A stretch of 40,372 nt of DNA from Lentisphaeria bacterium. Its GTDB lineage: Bacteria; Verrucomicrobiota; Lentisphaeria; Victivallales; UBA1829. Below the pieces are notes generated by a model. The model did not search any database. It was not told the origin of the DNA and worked only from the letters and a program-made list of their open reading frames with translations. Below, piece after piece: positions 31,273 to 40,372 of the stretch (the first letter of the stretch is position 1; every line of letters begins with the position of its first letter). Where the stretch lies: contig JAGBXB010000021.1 of the NCBI GenBank assembly GCA_017629515.1, forward strand, positions 1-40,372. Reading direction: 5' to 3'. Both the position numbers and the translations under genes were made by a program.

Positions 31273-32676
31273 ATGAAAAATGCAAATCATGGTGATGCTA
31301 TTATCACGCGCAAAAACCGTGACAAAATGATCAACGAGAGAGTTGTTGCTGAACAGATCCTTCAGAAACACGTACTGATTTTTTACCGGGGGAATTTCTT
31401 CCGGTATGTTCCTGAAGCAAAGATTTATAACAATGAGAGTGACAATTCGCTGAGGATTTTGATCGGCGATGAGGTGCCAAAAATTTGTGAAGAAGAAAGC
31501 AGTGAAGATATTTCCAGTCTGCTGACGCAAAATGTTATAAATGGGATTAAAAACTGGCTTTGTTCTCTGGCAGAGGATGACGTTGCTTTTGCCGAAAAAA
31601 AATTTATTTATCATTGCAGAAATGGTGTTCTTTGTTATGAAAACGAGCGTATTATTTTGAAGGAGCATTCCCCTGATTTCAGAAGCTTGTGGAGAAGCGA
31701 TATTGTTTATGACCCCAAGGCAGTTCCGGAACGTTTTATTGCTGAGCTCCTGACGCCAGCTTTATCCCAAGATCAAATTGAAATTCTCCAGATGTACATG
31801 GGACAATGCCTGTTCGTCCAAAATACGTCTCAGACTTTTCTGTTGCTGACAGGAACGGCAGGCGCAGGAAAATCCACATTGGCATCGCTCATAGAAAAGT
31901 TGATCGGTCGGCCCAATTATGGGACGATCCGTTTAGGACATACAAACGGACGTTTTGAGTTGTCACGCTTAATTGGACGCAGTCTGCTCACTGCAAAAGA
32001 TGTCCCGCCCAATTTTCTTTCTCAAAGCGGCGGAGCAAATTTGAAGGCGTTGACCGGTGATGATTTTATGGAAGTAGAGTTCAAAAATTCGAATGCGATA
32101 AATGAAATACGGGGCAGTTTCAATGTAATCATCACAAGCAACAGTATTTTGAGATTGAATATCGCATCCGACATAGACGCATGGCGCAGGCGGATTCTGT
32201 GGCTTGATTATCGCAATGCACCGGTAAAAGAAAAAATTGCAAATTTTGCCGATACCTTGTTCCAGAAAGAAGGCTCAGGTATTTTGAATTGGGCTCTGGA
32301 AGGCTTAATGAAATTGAGTAAAAACGGATGGCTGATTCCGAAAAGCAAAGAACAGATGCGGCAAGTAAACTTCCTTTTGAAAAGTTCAGATCCTGTTAGA
32401 ACATTTGTCCGGAATTTCATCTGTACTTCTGCAGTTGACCGCTTGCCGACGGATGAATTGGTAAAGGCTTACGGATTTATCAGTGAACACTACCGCTGGG
32501 ACTCGATCCCCAGAAGGAAACTGGAACTGCAATTAAAAACATTAATACCAGAAATTTACAACGCATATCCCTCCAACACAATAATCCGGAGAGGAAAACG
32601 CTGCCGTGGATATCTGGGGATACAACTGAAACTGTCAGCCGACATAATAGAAAAAATGAATGCAAATTCAAAATAA
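31273..32676 (+). CDS. Phage/plasmid P4-D5-type superfamily 3 helicase
   Basis: This is a 467-residue protein. Walker A GTAGAGKST (about 193-201) is followed by HTNGRFELSRLIGRSLLTAKDV, a sensor ITSNS and an arginine-finger region WRRRILWLDYR. This is the SF3 helicase order found in D5-like/P4-like phage and satellite replication proteins. The N-terminal 150 residues look like the D5_N domain. No archaeo-eukaryotic primase or zinc domain is visible, so it may be a helicase only and need a separate primase. AAAGGAG is upstream of the ATG. It is the first gene of a three-gene run with two unknown genes, probably driving replication of a mobile element. Confidence 0.82.
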   Translation: MKNANHGDAIITRKNRDKMINERVVAEQILQKHVLIFYRGNFFRYVPEAKIYNNESDNSLRILIGDEVPKICEEESSEDISSLLTQNVINGIKNWLCSLAEDDVAFAEKKFIYHCRNGVLCYENERIILKEHSPDFRSLWRSDIVYDPKAVPERFIAELLTPALSQDQIEILQMYMGQCLFVQNTSQTFLLLTGTAGAGKSTLASLIEKLIGRPNYGTIRLGHTNGRFELSRLIGRSLLTAKDVPPNFLSQSGGANLKALTGDDFMEVEFKNSNAINEIRGSFNVIITSNSILRLNIASDIDAWRRRILWLDYRNAPVKEKIANFADTLFQKEGSGILNWALEGLMKLSKNGWLIPKSKEQMRQVNFLLKSSDPVRTFVRNFICTSAVDRLPTDELVKAYGFISEHYRWDSIPRRKLELQLKTLIPEIYNAYPSNTIIRRGKRCRGYLGIQLKLSADIIEKMNANSK

Positions 32677-32712: not shown

Positions 32713-33240
32713 ATGAATATTACAAAATTACCGGATGTACCGGACATTACCGTATCCCCGCAAATGACTGCTGATTTAATCAGAGAAAAAACGGCATTGC
32801 CCCTTTCCATGGAGTTTAAGACCTATCTTGAGAAAGTCTCTTCCTTTGAGGTGGAAAAGTTTCTTTTTGCCCCGGAAGACCTTGTTTGGATGACCAAATA
32901 TTTTGATTCGGCGAACTCTGCTCATTGGGGATATAACTATGATTTCGTTCTGAAACAGGAAGCTCAATTCCTGTTACCATCGCCACTGAACTCAACTTTT
33001 CCTGTGCGAAATTTTCTGCTCCCGATAGAGAGATGGAAAAAGTTCAGGAATTATTTAGGATGTCCATGCCTGATCTTTGGGCTGTTGGCAGCATTGTTTT
33101 TTCGATTAATGCAGGCGAAGTCAGATATTGATCTGGCAGAGGTTGTCCGGATCACATTTTCTGGTAAAACTGTGTTAGAAATGGAAAAGGAATTTTATTT
33201 TTTAATTACAGGAGGCGGTTTTGATGATTTATGTCAATGA
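32713..33240 (+). CDS. Unrecognised protein downstream of the helicase
   Basis: This is a 175-residue protein with no family I recognise. The N-terminus is acidic and proline-rich (MNITKLPDVPDITVSPQ). A hydrophobic stretch near residues 115-135 (CPCLIFGLLAALFFRLM) could be one membrane segment or a core helix. GAAAGG precedes the ATG. It starts 36 bases after the helicase stop and its 3' end overlaps the next gene by 17 bases. Confidence 0.65.
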   Translation: MNITKLPDVPDITVSPQMTADLIREKTALPLSMEFKTYLEKVSSFEVEKFLFAPEDLVWMTKYFDSANSAHWGYNYDFVLKQEAQFLLPSPLNSTFPVRNFLLPIERWKKFRNYLGCPCLIFGLLAALFFRLMQAKSDIDLAEVVRITFSGKTVLEMEKEFYFLITGGGFDDLCQ

Positions 33241-34873
33241 ACGTTGTATTATAAACTGGGCCCTTTCTGCACGTGTGCGTAATGCTTCTCAGATAGATCT
33301 TATGCTGCGGAATCTTTTGAGTGCAGGAAGATTGGGGCAAGTCTTTCAAGGAAGACAGGAAGGATGTTATTTTATCCACCCTTCGGGAGAGTTTAATGTC
33401 ACAGACCGGCAAACCTATGTACCGCGCAAGCCAAATTTCTACCCTGCAATGCTCCGCAGTATGAAAATCTTGCCCTTACTCCCCCAAATGGAAGTTGCTC
33501 CGGAAGTTCATTTTTATCCGGACAAGCCTTGTGATATCCATGATTTTATATTTCCCATGCTGCGGCTTTATCGGCTGTGGCATGGGATGAAGACAAATAC
33601 ACGGGAGAGTATTGAAGAAGATGATCTTGGGCTTGCAGAACAATGCAAACTCTTTATGGATCAATACACTGCCGGGTGGCAAAAACTTCCAGGACAAAAT
33701 TACAATGAAGTTCGAACGCTTAATGGAGAAAATATTTTTCTGCCATTTTCCCAGTATCAGCACCCCTCGTATATGGTTTCGCTGACGGTCTTTGAATATG
33801 CGGCACAACCCGAGCCGATCTTCAGCCCAACAGCATATAACAGTCCGGATTTACTCCTGACATCAGACCCTGGTGTTTTTAACAAAAATCTTCAAACTGT
33901 TTTTGTCGATCAGCTGGAGCTTATTTTCATGAATGTTAATCTGCTTCGTTTTAAAAATTTACACTGGCTTTTGCTTGATGATACCAAAAGTTCATATAGA
34001 GAAGCAATTAACTTTGCCTCAAAAGCGCGTAAAGAAAACTTGAACCTCGACTTCATAAAAATTAATAAAAATGGGAAAGAAATTGAGCAGTTTACTATTC
34101 CCCGGCTGGTTAAGGAATCCAAACTTACAGAGTTTGAACTGCCGGATAATCTGCCCTTTCATTATCTCGGAATGATCGACATCTTTGGAGAAGCAAATAG
34201 AGGTCATTTTATTTCTCCCATTCTGAGTAATGGCGGGTTCACAAAAGTTTTTTGTGATTCTGTAGATACGGCCCTTCAAATATTGGGTTCTTTGCTCCGG
34301 TCTTTAACAAGCGGGATATCTGAATACGCCGGATGGATTAATCTTTCAAGAGGCTTCAAATCACTTCTTCTGATAGATTTGGACTATAGAAAACTTGCCG
34401 CAAAACATTGCTGCAGCTGTGAAAAAGATTTCCTTTTCGTTTTTGATATTGCCAGCGTGGGGGGGATGAAAGGGAATGAAAAACTTCAGACAGCCATACG
34501 GGAAAATGATCCGGAGATTGCGGTGACATTAGCGACGAATAAGGCATTATCATCCTTAGGGCCGGTTATAGAAACATTGCAATCGAAGGATATTCCGATC
34601 CTGGTATTTGCCCCGGCAAACCTTCGGGATTCAGAGATTTTCGCTACTGCAGATACTTGGATAACAGCGACGAGGATTTCCAGCACCCCAGAGAAGATTG
34701 TTATAAAACAGGATAACGATTGTAAAACATTAGAGCGTATTGAGAACGGCTGGAAGGTGTGCAAAAGCAGTGAAGGTGATATTCAGGCTTCCAACCGGGA
34801 AACTGACCCACAACGTCAACTGTCAGAAATTAAACAGATTGATAAGCTGCCAGAACAGGAGGACTTGATATAA
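33224..34873 (+). CDS. Unrecognised protein of the helicase operon
   Basis: The protein is about 549 residues and was not assigned to a family. The last 180 residues alternate hydrophobic strands and helices: LLLIDLDYR, FLFVFDIASVG, IAVTLATNKA, DIPILVFAPA and ATADTWITATRI. This resembles a P-loop-like core without a Walker A motif. ATG at 33224 was chosen because GGAGG is 8 bases upstream; TTG 33221 is also in frame. It overlaps the preceding gene by 17 bases, so the two are likely cotranslated. A conserved accessory or replication role is only inferred from the operon. Confidence 0.65.
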   Translation: MIYVNERCIINWALSARVRNASQIDLMLRNLLSAGRLGQVFQGRQEGCYFIHPSGEFNVTDRQTYVPRKPNFYPAMLRSMKILPLLPQMEVAPEVHFYPDKPCDIHDFIFPMLRLYRLWHGMKTNTRESIEEDDLGLAEQCKLFMDQYTAGWQKLPGQNYNEVRTLNGENIFLPFSQYQHPSYMVSLTVFEYAAQPEPIFSPTAYNSPDLLLTSDPGVFNKNLQTVFVDQLELIFMNVNLLRFKNLHWLLLDDTKSSYREAINFASKARKENLNLDFIKINKNGKEIEQFTIPRLVKESKLTEFELPDNLPFHYLGMIDIFGEANRGHFISPILSNGGFTKVFCDSVDTALQILGSLLRSLTSGISEYAGWINLSRGFKSLLLIDLDYRKLAAKHCCSCEKDFLFVFDIASVGGMKGNEKLQTAIRENDPEIAVTLATNKALSSLGPVIETLQSKDIPILVFAPANLRDSEIFATADTWITATRISSTPEKIVIKQDNDCKTLERIENGWKVCKSSEGDIQASNRETDPQRQLSEIKQIDKLPEQEDLI

Positions 34874-35599: not shown

Positions 35600-38428
35600 T
35601 TAATCTTCCGTGAAATCGAAAGACTCCAGTTTCAAAACGACACTGTTTTCTTTCGCAGCCCGGATCGTATTGTCGTCAAACGGTGTTTGAGAAGATGCCT
35701 CAATGTCGAGTTTCAGAGAAACCTCGATTCCCGGTTTTGTCGTAAACAGTGATACCAGCTCCTGCATGACATTCTGGAGTTGCAATGCTCCGGTAACGGG
35801 ATCTAATTCAATGGTTCCGAAGAATCTTTTATATTGCTTTTTCGGCTGACCACCAGGCTGAACCGTAGAACCTCCCGCAGCGGGAGTTGCTCCACCGTTG
35901 CCACCAGTTTCCGGAATCACAGCACTTCCGCCACTTGCCGGATCACCAGGCTGGACAGGAACGGGAACTGGCTGAGCATGTGCCGCTTTATAATTGGCAG
36001 CAGCATCACACTCGATCAAGAGAGCACTATCGTCAATTTCCAGAGTAAAAACCTGTTCGCCGTATTTGAAGCCGAGGTATTTTTCTCCCTCTTTGCCATC
36101 CGCAAAACCGAAGTAATCACCTTTTGTCACGCCATCGGTCATTGAGCGGTCAAAAACATCTTCATTCAGCAGGCGCGGCATTTGATAATACGTACAACAA
36201 TCCTGCCAAACTTTTAAGACAGAAACCTCGGTCTGACCGTTTTTGAAGTAGTTATCAGCCAGATGTTTTTTCAAGAACACCGGGGACCATCGCTGGATGA
36301 TATATTCTCCTTCAGTAAGAACTTTTTCCACTGCTGAAGCGATATTACTGTTCGTTGTACCTATGCGTCTAACTTCAAAACCGACCTTGCTCGGACCATT
36401 TTGCTCAGGGATCATAAGGAACCGATAACACTCAAGCAGTGTTTGTTCCAAAATAGTAGAGGCGGCATCACATTCTTTCTTGGCCTGATTTATCTGGAAT
36501 GTATCCAGATTCAGACGCATTGCTTCAATATCAGCAACAATTTCTTTCCACGCCAAATATATCCGACACTGTTCAAGGACACGACCGATATTGTTCAGAT
36601 CTGGCGCCAGAAAGAAGAGGCGATTTCTGCGCAGACGCGGCTGTTCTCCGCGTCGTTCCAATATGGATTCAGCAGCGCCAAATGCAAGTCTTTTATCCGC
36701 ACTGGAATAAGCATTACCAATTTCCGGAGGCAAAACGACCAAACGGGGACCGTTGCCGATTTCGTCCGGGATGTCTGCGTGAGAAGTAAAAACATGAACC
36801 CCTGCAAACAAATTACCATGTCCAACCAGCTTTGAAGTCGAATCTTTCAAAGTTTTATTCAAAAGAGTTAGATCAATTTTTGCTTTTCTGCTTTCCATTT
36901 CTCTGCGCAAATTCGGACGCGTATCAAACCAGAAGCGATCCACATCTGCAAAAAGATAATGAAGTTTGTCGCGCAGGCGTTTCAACACATCCTCATAAAC
37001 AGATAAGCTCTGGTCAGGAATTGCGCTTCCAAGCAAAATACGCCCCATAGCGATCCCACGATGGCCCTGGGCAGAAGATGAAGGAGCGCTTCCCAGGAAG
37101 ATCGTTCTGGCAGCACGACGGGCAGCAAAGATGCTGCCGAATCGAGTATCATTTCCGTCAATTCGGGCCGGTTCGGAACTGTCGCCATCAATTTCTTTGT
37201 CGATGATCGGGTCCCAGCCCTGGGGAAGATAATGAACGCTCTTAATTCGGACATTGGTATCTTCCAGCGGAATTGAGCCGGGCATAATCATGGGATCTTG
37301 GTCATTGCTGTTCCAGAGCCGGTGAATAATAATCGCCATATACTGCAGGACGCCGCGTGTTTTCTGGAATTTATCAAGAGTTGACCAGTCCTGATACAGT
37401 CGATCAAAAATTTCCGGGTGAATCGGATAGGATTTTTTCAGACGTTCAGCGTAGGAGCCTTCTTGAATTTCTGGCGGGAGCTTATCTTTGTTTTTGCGAT
37501 AATAGTCTACAAATTCCTGACAGACGTTTTCCAGTTCTGCCTGATCGCCCATCGAGTCAAACAACCGGCGTCGGACAATTTCAAAAGATTCATCGGAGGC
37601 AACGGGCTTCCAGACGCTTTCGACACGCCCAAAGTATTTTTCGAGAGTATCCAAGACGCGCTGACCAAATGAACCGACAGCTTCTGTGTTGGATTCGGGA
37701 AGAGAGGCCAGCAGAATCGCATTGGGGACAGCTTTCACACTTTCTGTGAGAGACTGAATAAAGCTCATGTTGCTTTCAAATGTACCGGCAGACAAACGAG
37801 CCGAACCATCCAGCTGACGATAAAATGCCACCAACTCGTCAAGGAGCAAAACGCAGGGAGATGCTTTTTTCAGCAAGTCAATCATGACTTCTTTGCCGGG
37901 AGCAGAACCGGAGTCATCACTATCCTTTACCATATCATAGCCTTCTGCGCCCAGGAGTTGATAGGCGATCTGGCCCCAGATGGTTTTGATTTTAAGAGCT
38001 CCACGTTCCATCGGCTGATTCGGAGAAAGATTTGTCCCGTCAATAACAGCGATCCTGGCAGTTGGCAAATGGGTGATCCCCGCTTCATCCAGCAAGGAGG
38101 GAATTCCGGGGAGTTTATCCGTAGAAACCTTACGACTGGCCAGATGATAGACAGCGAGCAGCGTGTGAGTTTTACCACCACCAAAGTTGGTCTGGAGCTG
38201 AATTACCGGATCGCCAGCTTTGCCAGCAAGACGCTGAGCCACAGAAATCAAAAGCAGACGCATCCCTTCGGTAATATAGGTGCGGGCATAAAATTTCTCA
38301 GCATCCTGATATTCCGGTGTTGCGATTCCACGTGCTACTTGTGAAATATCTGCAGCAAACTCTGATTGTTTAAAAGTACCTTCCAGCACATCTTTGTGCG
38401 GACGAGCGATCTGTCTCCACGGTTTCAT
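35600..38428 (-). CDS. DUF499-family AAA-type ATPase
   Basis: This is a 942-residue protein. Walker A NFGGGKTH (about 81-88) and Walker [12 protein letters not shown] (about 193-202) fit the DUF499 ATPase family. Members of this family are often found in defence islands beside DUF1156 DNA methylases; none is seen here. A Pro/Gly-rich low-complexity linker ([14 protein letters not shown] and following) at about residues 820-860 separates a C-terminal region. ATG 38428 was chosen because AGAGGA precedes it and the upstream gene's TGA overlaps it (ATGA). It is the third gene of a tightly packed operon. Its composition is far richer in G+C than its upstream neighbours. Confidence 0.82.
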
Positions 38429-39048
38429 ATTTTTTCCTCTACTTTCCAAGAATATGCTGTTGATGGTATTGCCATTGCGTCCATATCAACAACATGTAAA
38501 TAATCTTTCATCGGTCCAAGTTTTTGAGCTAATTTCTCTTGAATATCTAAAAGAGGAACTATTTTCCTTTTAGAGCCATACAAACCAGAAGAATATGGGA
38601 CTACAGGTGATTCAAAATGAAAGACAAACTTTATGCTAATATCTTCCATCCTAATCTTTTTTAAGAAGTCTTTACAACTTTCATCTGCTGAGATAAAACC
38701 AATGCACCAAACTCCGAAGAGAGTATCTCGAAATTTTTTGGCAACCTCTAAAATGATATGATCAATTGGAGGGGTTGATTCTTTTCGATAATCTTTAGCT
38801 TCTATTAAATAAAGACAATCTGATGTTTTGTACAAAACATCGACTCCTTTCAAACCTTCGTTTTTCTTTTGCCGTTTACATATTGAATAATCTTTGCATT
38901 CTTTTTTAGGACAGGAATGACTGCCACATTGAATACACTCACATTCCAATTGGAATGCTGTACTTAACTGCTGAAAAGTCTTTTGCGCATCAAATTTTTT
39001 TGCATTTTCTGGCAGTTCAAATGTAAATTTTAAGCTATCAACATCCAT
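38425..39048 (-). CDS. PD-(D/E)XK nuclease-like protein with cysteine cluster
   Basis: This is a 207-residue protein. A Cys-rich stretch ([20 protein letters not shown] and one more Cys) at about 45-70 looks like a metal-binding cluster. Directly after it, [20 protein letters not shown] fits the PD-(D/E)XK motif: Asp, then Glu-x-Lys as E-A-K. ATG 39048 has GAGG 5 bases before it, and that GAGG overlaps the stop of the ATPase gene. A longer frame starting at 39138 would overlap that gene by about 80 bases. Its 3' end overlaps the DUF499 start by 4 bases. It is inferred to be a nuclease partner of the ATPases; activity is unproven. Confidence 0.65.
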
Positions 39049-39055
39049 AGTGGCC

Positions 39056-40372
39056 TCAATATCTTGTTGATAGTATTCTATCTGATTGAAGCAATTCTTC
39101 ATCAAGAGATGTAATATGTCGTAGATCAGATGTTTCATAACTTTGATCTATTGAACCATCAGGATGTAGTCCGATATAACGTACAAATTTATCATTATGT
39201 TCAAGCTTTGATAAATATTCCAATTCTCTCAGCAAGAATAAACTGTGAGTTGTCAAGAAAATTTGCACGCCAATTGAACCCAATTTTGCTATTACTTGAG
39301 CAAGAACTTTTATCAGAGCCGAGTTTTGGTTTGCTTCCGGCTCATCCCAAAACAAAATACTACCTGGTGCAATTGCTCCCACTTTTAACAACTGCAATAT
39401 TTCACCCAGTTTGCGCCAACCTTCTGCCGCCATATCAACTTCAAAAGGTTTACCATTTCCACGTTTTTGCATCATAAAACGATTGGTTGCGTAATCCAAA
39501 TAAAAAGTTGCTCCAATAGAGTTCTCGATAATAGAACATATTTCGTGGATAGCTATATTCTGCGAATCTAAACTTGGCAATCCTAAAAGCGATACCGTAT
39601 CATAATATGTTTGATCATAAGGCATTTTTTCTTTATAAGTATTAAAAATGGAAATAAACCCTGGATAGATGGATAGGAGTTCTCTTGTCGGCAAAAATAC
39701 CACGCCTGAAGTGATTAACTGTTTTGCAAAAAAAGGTTCATAATCAACCAGTTTTCTATTCTTTTTACCATATACAAAATATTTTTGTTTTTGCATGGAA
39801 AATTCAATAAAAAAGTTATCTCCTGAATTTCTGCGAACAAGATCCGATTTATTTTTAATACCAAAAATTTTCCTCGCAATATTTATAAATCTATCTTCAA
39901 CTTGCAGTTTTTCATTATTTATAAATCTATCTTCAACTTGCAGTTTTTCATTATTATTTCCCGTCAACAATTTAAAAATTGAATACAACAGTTTTAATAG
40001 GTGTGTTTTTCCTGTTCCATTTGCACCTATTAAAACATTTATATTTCTTCCAAAATCAAAAGTAGCTGTTCGAAAAACTGTAAAATTTTGCAGTTTTAGA
40101 AAATTAGGATAATTAATGTTATCAAAAATTTCTGCACAAATATCGCTGTATTTAGGTATTTCTGTTTCAACAAAAATATCATCCCGAAACACCATGACAT
40201 CAAACGAATTTTCTCTCTCTACATAAAGATAAAACGGACATGTGAATTTTTCAGCAACTTCGTTGGCATAGCTTTTAAATCTATCCGTAGGAAAACGTCT
40301 GGAATAACTAAGAACTTCGAAAACAGCGAGAGGATTTTCTGATACTCCAGGAGCCATAATTGTAAAATCAGA
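39056..40372 (-). CDS. AAA ATPase with N-terminal restriction-nuclease-like domain (5' end outside window)
   Basis: The frame is open to the right edge, so the true start lies outside; ATG 40357 is internal to a conserved-looking stretch. The visible N-terminus (SDFTIM then PLAVFEVLSYSRRF) matches the pattern of type I restriction HsdR_N-like folds (D, then E-x-K), with Leu where the Lys is expected, so this site may be inactive. After it come Walker A GANGTGKT, Walker B ILFWDEPEAN and the H-loop FLTTHS, an ABC/AAA_21-type ATPase like OLD-family proteins. A 12-residue tandem repeat lies after Walker A (see findings). A 12-base gap precedes the nuclease-like gene in the same operon. Confidence 0.78.
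   Translation of the reverse strand, partial: SDFTIMAPGVSENPLAVFEVLSYSRRFPTDRFKSYANEVAEKFTCPFYLYVERENSFDVMVFRDDIFVETEIPKYSDICAEIFDNINYPNFLKLQNFTVFRTATFDFGRNINVLIGANGTGKTHLLKLLYSIFKLLTGNNNEKLQVEDRFINNEKLQVEDRFINIARKIFGIKNKSDLVRRNSGDNFFIEFSMQKQKYFVYGKKNRKLVDYEPFFAKQLITSGVVFLPTRELLSIYPGFISIFNTYKEKMPYDQTYYDTVSLLGLPSLDSQNIAIHEICSIIENSIGATFYLDYATNRFMMQKRGNGKPFEVDMAAEGWRKLGEILQLLKVGAIAPGSILFWDEPEANQNSALIKVLAQVIAKLGSIGVQIFLTTHSLFLLRELEYLSKLEHNDKFVRYIGLHPDGSIDQSYETSDLRHITSLDEELLQSDRILSTRY
39882..39953. repeat. 36-bp in-frame tandem duplication
   Basis: Two identical 36-base units (39882-39917 and 39918-39953) encode NNEKLQVEDRFI twice in the ATPase gene, just after the Walker A helix. Identical copies imply a recent duplication; unequal slippage could change the copy number. 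Confidence 0.8.

What the first reader, a model, noticed from the sequence alone, without database searches (positions are those of the whole stretch)
35600..40372. Three-gene ATPase/nuclease operon with a candidate defence function
The sequence shows an ATPase with an N-terminal restriction-like domain, a Cys-cluster PD-(D/E)XK-like protein and a DUF499 ATPase, joined by stop/ribosome-binding-site and ATGA overlaps. DUF499 usually accompanies a DUF1156 methylase in defence islands. Here no methylase is visible, and the two nuclease-like domains differ: one keeps E-A-K and the other has Leu in place of Lys. This combination does not match any single system I can name.
Basis: partly seen in the sequence, partly recalled or inferred. 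Interest (0 to 1): 0.7.

Follow-up and report, generated by a model that had tools for sequence, protein, structure and literature searches.

The report
Defence nuclease swapped with ATPase tail
These three genes match the right-hand part of a predicted bacterial anti-phage operon (Hma) carrying an ATPase-nuclease pair, and relatives show that the nuclease is exchanged together with the last 55 residues of its ATPase, which likely form the socket that holds it.

Summary
The contig ends inside the first gene. In the closest complete relative (L004) the order is HmaA, PtuA-PtuB, HmaB (the DUF1156 methylase), HEC-02 ATPase, HEC-02 nuclease, HmaC. The missing methylase is therefore expected just past the edge; it was not found elsewhere in the 82%-complete assembly. 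The stand-alone nuclease keeps D...ExK. The ATPase's N-terminal nuclease-like domain keeps D and E but has lost Lys here (19 of 24 rows keep it).

The new part is a cassette exchange. Window and L004 share the ATPase core (77%) and hmaC (about 80% of bases), but ATPase tail and nuclease were replaced together (27% each). Core and nuclease trees conflict (AU p 6e-89 and 1e-39). Among relatives, two core types each occur with two tail types. Across 82 pairs the tail tracks the nuclease best (partial r 0.49, permutation p 0.001). I infer that the tail docks the nuclease; physical linkage could also explain the pattern. Defence, nuclease activity and trigger are untested. New variant of a known kind.

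The parts
35600..38428 (-). hmaC: DUF499 AAA+ ATPase, 942 aa
   Evidence: PADLOC HmaC 1396 bits over nearly the full profile; Pfam DUF499 E 3.7e-39; frame and ATG checked
38425..39048 (-). HEC-02 nuclease, Cys-cluster type, 207 aa, with D70...E83-A-K85 (codons 38841-38839, 38802-38800, 38796-38794)
   Evidence: PADLOC HEC-02A 57 bits over profile 34-168 of 170; D70, E83, K85 invariant in 34 of 34 rows; model pLDDT 86.5
38878..38943 (-). Cys cluster of the nuclease (C36, C38, C41, C46, C51, C57), possible metal site
   Evidence: CxCxxC...C in 17 of 17 close relatives; absent in 15 of the 16 short-type rows; metal binding not tested
39056..40372 (-). HEC-02 ABC-type ATPase, 438 aa present, start lost at the contig end
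40109..40372 (-). N-terminal PD-(D/E)XK-like domain of the ATPase (incomplete), catalytic Lys replaced by Leu
   Evidence: D 23 of 24, E 23 of 24, K 19 of 24 rows, Leu here; weak HSDR_N_2 match, E 0.12, in one of five sequences scanned; not folded on its own
39056..39223 (-). C-terminal tail of the ATPase (last 55 residues), proposed nuclease dock
   Evidence: tail follows the nuclease type in trees and distances; docking itself inferred
38453..39232 (-). stretch replaced relative to L004: ATPase tail plus nuclease gene
   Evidence: 17-58% base identity per 60-base piece against 95-100% just upstream and 80% or more just downstream
39880..39955 (-). exact 36-bp tandem duplication inside the ATPase gene
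   Evidence: Tandem Repeats Finder, 2.1 copies, 100% matches

Best explanation
The three genes match HmaC and the HEC-02 ATPase-nuclease pair of candidate anti-phage Hma operons, whose other genes are predicted to lie past the contig end, and the ATPase likely holds and controls the nuclease through its C-terminal tail, because relatives show tail and nuclease exchanged together. SHOWN: the family matches and gene order; the conserved D...ExK motif of the nuclease; loss of Lys in the ATPase's own N-terminal domain; replacement of tail plus nuclease between otherwise related loci. INFERRED: HmaA and HmaB lie upstream here as in L004. The ATPase forms a PtuA-like oligomer that senses infection (or inhibition of Hma) and then releases or activates the nuclease bound to its tail. 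The nuclease cuts nucleic acid as a backup to the Hma helicase-nuclease. In this lineage the N-terminal domain no longer cuts and serves binding or scaffolding.
For: Names. Complete relative L004 and position between HmaB and HmaC: (10 of 10 loci where HmaB, HmaC and an HEC-02 gene were all called). Sharp loss and return of identity at tail and nuclease. Core 77%, tail 27%, nuclease 27% against L004; P0003 and P0006 have cores 97% alike and tails 25% alike and carry the window's tail (93%) and L004's tail (87%); P0010/P0017 core 93%, tail 35%. Core tree joins window and L004 (100/100) and rejects one clade of Cys-nuclease owners (p 6e-89); nuclease tree rejects window+L004 (p 1e-39); tail tree splits the two nuclease types 100/99. 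Over 82 pairs the tail's partial correlation with the nuclease is 0.49, against -0.13 to 0.19 for windows starting at columns 0-240; 0.50 in 60 pairs and 0.44 in 54 pairs of reduced sets. The end of the tail keeps E456 and R463 in 90% or more of rows and Q460 in all of 34 (L004 numbering).
Against: No interaction, nuclease or phage assay. Tail and nuclease are neighbours, so linkage alone could carry them together; all 60 adjacent pairs have the nuclease downstream and none upstream, so no arrangement separates the two ideas. In the 54-pair set the next best piece reaches 0.36. Several ATPases without a called nuclease neighbour keep the same tail motif (for example L010, L041). The window's tail is only 37-48% like the other Cys-type tails, against 33-36% for L004-type ones. 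The tail's end has low model confidence, about 60. Twelve pairings used rest on equal contig lengths, not on DNA. No HmaA or HmaB is in the window's assembly.
Confidence: 0.62

Rival explanations
1. Plain linkage: the tail has no docking role. Recombination needs conserved DNA, the last conserved stretch before the nuclease is the Walker B / H-loop region, and the variable tail just travels with the next gene.
For: The exchange starts right after a 95-100% identical stretch and ends at the conserved start of hmaC. Partial correlations rise gradually toward the nuclease (0.17, 0.25, 0.29, 0.40, 0.49). The nuclease is always downstream (60 of 60 adjacent pairs).
Against: The tail's correlation does not fall along the nuclease gene (0.36, 0.36, 0.40, 0.43 in 60 pairs; 0.32, 0.26, 0.38, 0.40 in 54; 0.22, 0.47, 0.40, 0.43 in 82), though one tract over the whole gene would do the same. 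The tail's end is among the most conserved parts.
Confidence: 0.28
2. The apparent exchange in the window is an assembly chimera at a contig end.
For: The junction lies 1.1 kb from the contig end, and parts of the ATPase are 93-100% identical to L004 while hmaC is about 80%. P0003 and P0017 come from single short contigs.
Against: Identity alternates several times instead of switching once. The window's tail recurs on two other ATPase cores (P0003 93%, P0020 71%). P0010/P0017 show another swap. The partial correlation holds in 60 pairs without the window's group.
Confidence: 0.07
3. The pair is a self-standing defence system that merely sits next to hmaC, in a genome that has lost hmaA and hmaB.
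For: 67 of 80 relatives' loci show no Hma gene within the fetched DNA, although many are cut short. No HmaB in the assembly.
Against: hmaC is 942 aa without internal stops and overlaps the nuclease by ATGA. L004, in the same order, has the whole operon. The contig ends before hmaB could appear.
Confidence: 0.12

Closest known systems
HEC-02 (PADLOC Hma-embedded candidate)
   Same: Both genes match its models; the place between HmaB and HmaC is the same in 10 of 10 loci where all were called.
   Different: The ATPase has an extra N-terminal PD-(D/E)XK-like domain outside the 344-position HEC-02B profile, and the nuclease has an inserted Cys cluster and matches only profile 34-168 of 170. Nothing I could read says whether HEC-02 was tested.
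Hma (also called DUF499-centred BREX-Related system)
   Same: HmaC at 1396 bits; L004 shows HmaA, HmaB and HmaC.
   Different: HmaA and HmaB are not in the window; the HEC-02 pair is an added module.
PARIS (AriA-AriB) and other OLD-ABC plus nuclease pairs in BREX/BR loci
   Same: An ABC ATPase with a separate nuclease inside a restriction-type locus; pairs with PD-(D/E)XK partners are reported for BREX/BR loci (PMC12839542, section 35 part 1 read).
   Different: The partner is not a TOPRIM nuclease (no such family match), and matched exchange of ATPase tail and nuclease is not mentioned in the passages I read.
Septu (PtuA-PtuB)
   Same: The ATPase model is nearest to PtuA, tied with SMC heads. 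A real PtuA-PtuB pair sits in the L004 operon.
   Different: The partner has D...ExK rather than an HNH nuclease; the HEC-02B model scores 234 bits against 40 for the best listed PtuA model.

Membership tests
Hma | HmaC (DUF499 ATPase) | tested here: met
   1396 bits over nearly the full profile
Hma | HmaB methylase | tested here: inconclusive
   Not in the assembly (with a control genome that rang), but the contig ends where it is expected; present in L004
Hma | HmaA helicase | tested here: inconclusive
   Only three weak helicase-core matches elsewhere in the assembly; present in L004
HEC-02 | ATPase matching HEC-02B | tested here: met
   234 bits, E 5.5e-70
HEC-02 | Nuclease matching HEC-02A | tested here: met
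   57 bits, E 4.8e-16, profile 34-168 of 170; no curated cut-off is shown for this library
HEC-02 | Embedded between Hma genes | tested here: inconclusive
   HmaC side met by ATGA overlap; the other side lies past the contig end
HEC-02 | Protects against phage | not testable with these tools
   Needs an infection assay
PARIS | TOPRIM-type AriB partner (feature as described in PMC12839542) | tested here: not met
   No TOPRIM match; the partner matches HEC-02A and has D...ExK
Septu | PtuB (HNH) partner | tested here: not met
   No PtuB match for the window's nuclease
NF042962 anti-phage DUF499 protein | Score above the curated cut-off of 1200 | tested here: not met
   190 bits
PD-(D/E)XK superfamily (stand-alone nuclease) | D...ExK motif and core fold | tested here: met
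PD-(D/E)XK superfamily (N-terminal domain of the ATPase) | D...ExK motif and core fold | tested here: inconclusive
   Motif in most relatives, Lys lost here; HSDR_N_2 E 0.12 in one of five sequences; hhalign against the nuclease alignment E 0.0026 but 11.6% probability; not folded alone

The most novel reading that the evidence does not exclude
HEC-02 ATPases are sensors with a plug-in effector port: the last 55 residues are a portable docking tail, and operons change their killing nuclease in one recombination step by exchanging tail and nuclease as a cassette while keeping the sensor and the surrounding Hma genes. The nuclease-like domain at the ATPase's front, its Lys lost here, is a former effector turned sensor or scaffold.
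Probability: 0.45. Interest if true: 0.66.

Novelty: new variant of a known kind. Interest (0 to 1): 0.5.

Why it matters
How ABC-ATPase defence systems (PARIS, Septu, retron effectors, HEC) pair one sensor with many nucleases is, as far as I know, open. A natural two-by-two exchange points to a stretch of about 55 residues that probably decides the pairing, and so makes the question directly testable. It would also show how nested defence operons can renew their effectors against phage counter-defences without losing the sensor.

Tried and rejected
A wholly new system: rejected, because every part has a PADLOC model. Uma2-like N-terminal domain (my first idea from the E-V-L motif): dropped once full-length relatives showed E-V-K. 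PARIS and Septu membership: rejected on the partner gene. Sequence search of the PDB with the nuclease: nothing up to E 1. Foldseek for the nuclease: no match at E<0.001. Viral contigs: 5 ATPase loci, not informative for the exchange. Class-wide search for more loci near the window: 8 of 197 genomes at E<=1e-40; I did not compare those loci pair by pair. HmaA in the window's genome was sought with the L004 protein only, not with the HmaA profile.

Pairings: twelve database pairs (six Cys-type, six L004-type) were inferred from equal longest-contig lengths, not read from DNA. P0006's own partner could not be checked this way.

Rows dropped before the correlation: 24 ATPase rows without an acceptable downstream neighbour. 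Seven of the 80 genome loci had no ATPase frame called (L036, L049, L051, L067, L071, L075, L076). 90 pairs fell to 82 after near-copies were removed. Pairs were accepted by position and length, not by nuclease score, so a few partners (such as L088 and L078) may not be nucleases of this family. L092 is the same contig as L004.

Notebook slips: entry 7 gives 3 viral loci with a nuclease (searches show 2) and 22 g72 genomes with the pair (one search has 22 with a nuclease match; one search shows 19 of those with both genes called); entry 6 calls all structural neighbours of the nuclease PD-(D/E)XK, which I did not check for each row (the family of Upx is not known to me, that of FokI, Can2 and others is recalled).

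Papers: Payne et al. 2024 (bioRxiv, cited elsewhere as the source of HEC) and Li et al. 2024 (PtuAB) are not held, so I do not know whether HEC-02 itself was tested. Searches that might have shown a report of tail-nuclease exchange listed none whose title or abstract start says so; I opened only some of the listed papers, and the library lacks most subscription journals and all preprints.
Full report
CHECK. The window is a whole contig (C127, 40,372 bases) of an unnamed, 82%-complete genome. At its right end three minus-strand genes run inwards from the edge: an ATPase (39056-40372, start missing), a 207-aa nuclease (38425-39048) and a 942-aa DUF499 ATPase (35600-38428), joined by TGA-GAGG-ATG and by ATGA.

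NAMES. PADLOC gives HmaC at 1396 bits, HEC-02B at 234 bits and HEC-02A at 57 bits. Hma is a candidate helicase-methylase-ATPase defence operon (PMC8565338, passages), placed among BREX-Related systems in PMC12839542, which says that a later study confirmed a phage-defence role for HmaA (passages). HEC means Hma-embedded candidate (PMC12988326, passages; PMC11411939, passages). PMC12839542 section 35 (part 1 read) already reports OLD-type ABC ATPases paired with PD-(D/E)XK nucleases in BREX and BR loci. The make-up of this operon is therefore known in kind.

THE MISSING HALF. A scan of genome contigs with the ATPase alignment kept the best 80 loci. The closest, L004 (Lentisphaerae bacterium SIG96, same order as the window's genome by its G200 copy), reads HmaA, PtuA, PtuB, HmaB, HEC-02 ATPase, HEC-02 nuclease, HmaC, Fic. 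13 of 80 loci carry Hma genes. In 10 of 10 where HmaB, HmaC and an HEC-02 gene were all called, HEC-02 lies between HmaB and HmaC. No HmaB was found in the window's own assembly, so the upstream half is most likely just unassembled.

THE EXCHANGE. Against L004 the window keeps 93-98% of bases at the front of the ATPase, 55-92% in the middle (20% across the 36-bp duplication) and 95-100% at 39412-39233. It then falls to 17-58% over 39232-38453 and returns to about 80% in hmaC, where single pieces range from 38 to 93%. The lost stretch is the ATPase tail plus the nuclease gene. In protein terms: core 77%, tail 27%, nuclease 27%. Trees of 30 chosen pairs agree. The core tree groups window with L004 (100/100) and rejects one clade of Cys-nuclease owners (p 6e-89). 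The nuclease tree has a Cys clade (100/100) and rejects window+L004 (p 1e-39). The tail tree, with only 59 columns, separates the 8 Cys-type from the 8 L004-type owners (100/99) and rejects window+L004 (p 7e-5) and P0003+P0006 (p 4e-6) as pairs. P0003 and P0006 have cores 97% alike and tails 25% alike; P0003 carries the window's tail (93%) and P0006 carries L004's (87%). P0010 and P0017 are another such pair (core 93%, tail 35%). Nucleases of P0003, P0006 and P0017 were not seen.

PARTNERS. L004 against six L004-type pairs: core 38-43%, tail 49-67%, nuclease 50-65%. L004 against seven Cys-type pairs other than the window: core 37-48%, tail 25-34%, nuclease 24-32%. The window against those seven: core 35-47%, tail 37-48%, nuclease 44-52%; against the six L004-type: core 36-41%, tail 33-36%, nuclease 23-28%. 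The window's tail thus leans to its own type only modestly.

GENERALITY. Over 82 non-redundant ATPase-nuclease pairs I correlated distances of 45-column pieces of the ATPase with nuclease distances, holding the rest of the ATPase constant. The tail gives 0.49 (p 0.001; largest of 999 shuffles 0.19). Windows starting at columns 0 to 240 give -0.13 to 0.19; those from 255 on give 0.25 to 0.49. Without the Cys and g72 groups (60 pairs) the tail gives 0.50 and no other tested piece more than 0.27. In the 54 genome-contig pairs it is 0.44 against 0.36 for the next piece. The tail's correlation does not fall along the nuclease gene; in the full set the first quarter is the weakest (0.22).

READING. 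The simplest account is a docking tail: the ATPase, likely a PtuA-like oligomer, holds a nuclease by its tail, so a new nuclease comes with its own tail. Plain linkage is the main rival, since the nuclease lies directly downstream in 60 of 60 adjacent pairs. Some ATPases without a called nuclease keep the tail motif, which docking alone does not explain. Defence activity, target and trigger are inferred from the family and from PARIS and Septu, and were not tested. How Septu and PARIS work is taken from passages in PMC12948488, PMC11980606 and PMC12839542.

NOVELTY. System and embedding are known. The N-terminal domain and the Cys cluster lie outside the PADLOC profiles that matched. The matched exchange of tail and nuclease was not seen in the searches named under Tried and rejected. 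I rate it a new variant of a known kind.

Noticed in passing
window 39880-39955: Exact 36-bp tandem duplication (12 residues twice) inside the ATPase gene, not seen in the aligned relatives.
   Followed up: partly
L004:5115-7077; also L023 and L059: A PtuA gene (with PtuB in L004) lies between HmaA and HmaB, so one Hma operon can carry two embedded ATPase-nuclease pairs.
   Followed up: partly
L004:14793-15710: A Fic-domain gene matching PADLOC PDC-S72 (394 bits) directly follows hmaC.
   Followed up: no
window 31273-32676 and 33221-34873: A P4/D5-type primase-helicase frame and a 550-aa frame without any family match lie on the plus strand beside hmaC; possibly a mobile-element boundary.
   Followed up: no
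L093-L109, L111-L116: 22 genomes of one genus (g72, same phylum) have a nuclease match, 19 of them with the ATPase called beside it; those nucleases are 247-265 aa.
   Followed up: partly
L084-L088: Five viral contigs encode HEC-02-type ATPases; two have a recognisable downstream nuclease, L084 and L086.
   Followed up: no
L074:11055-11651: A short-type nuclease from an Isosphaeraceae genome has its own, differently spaced Cys stretch at the same place as the window's Cys cluster.
   Followed up: no
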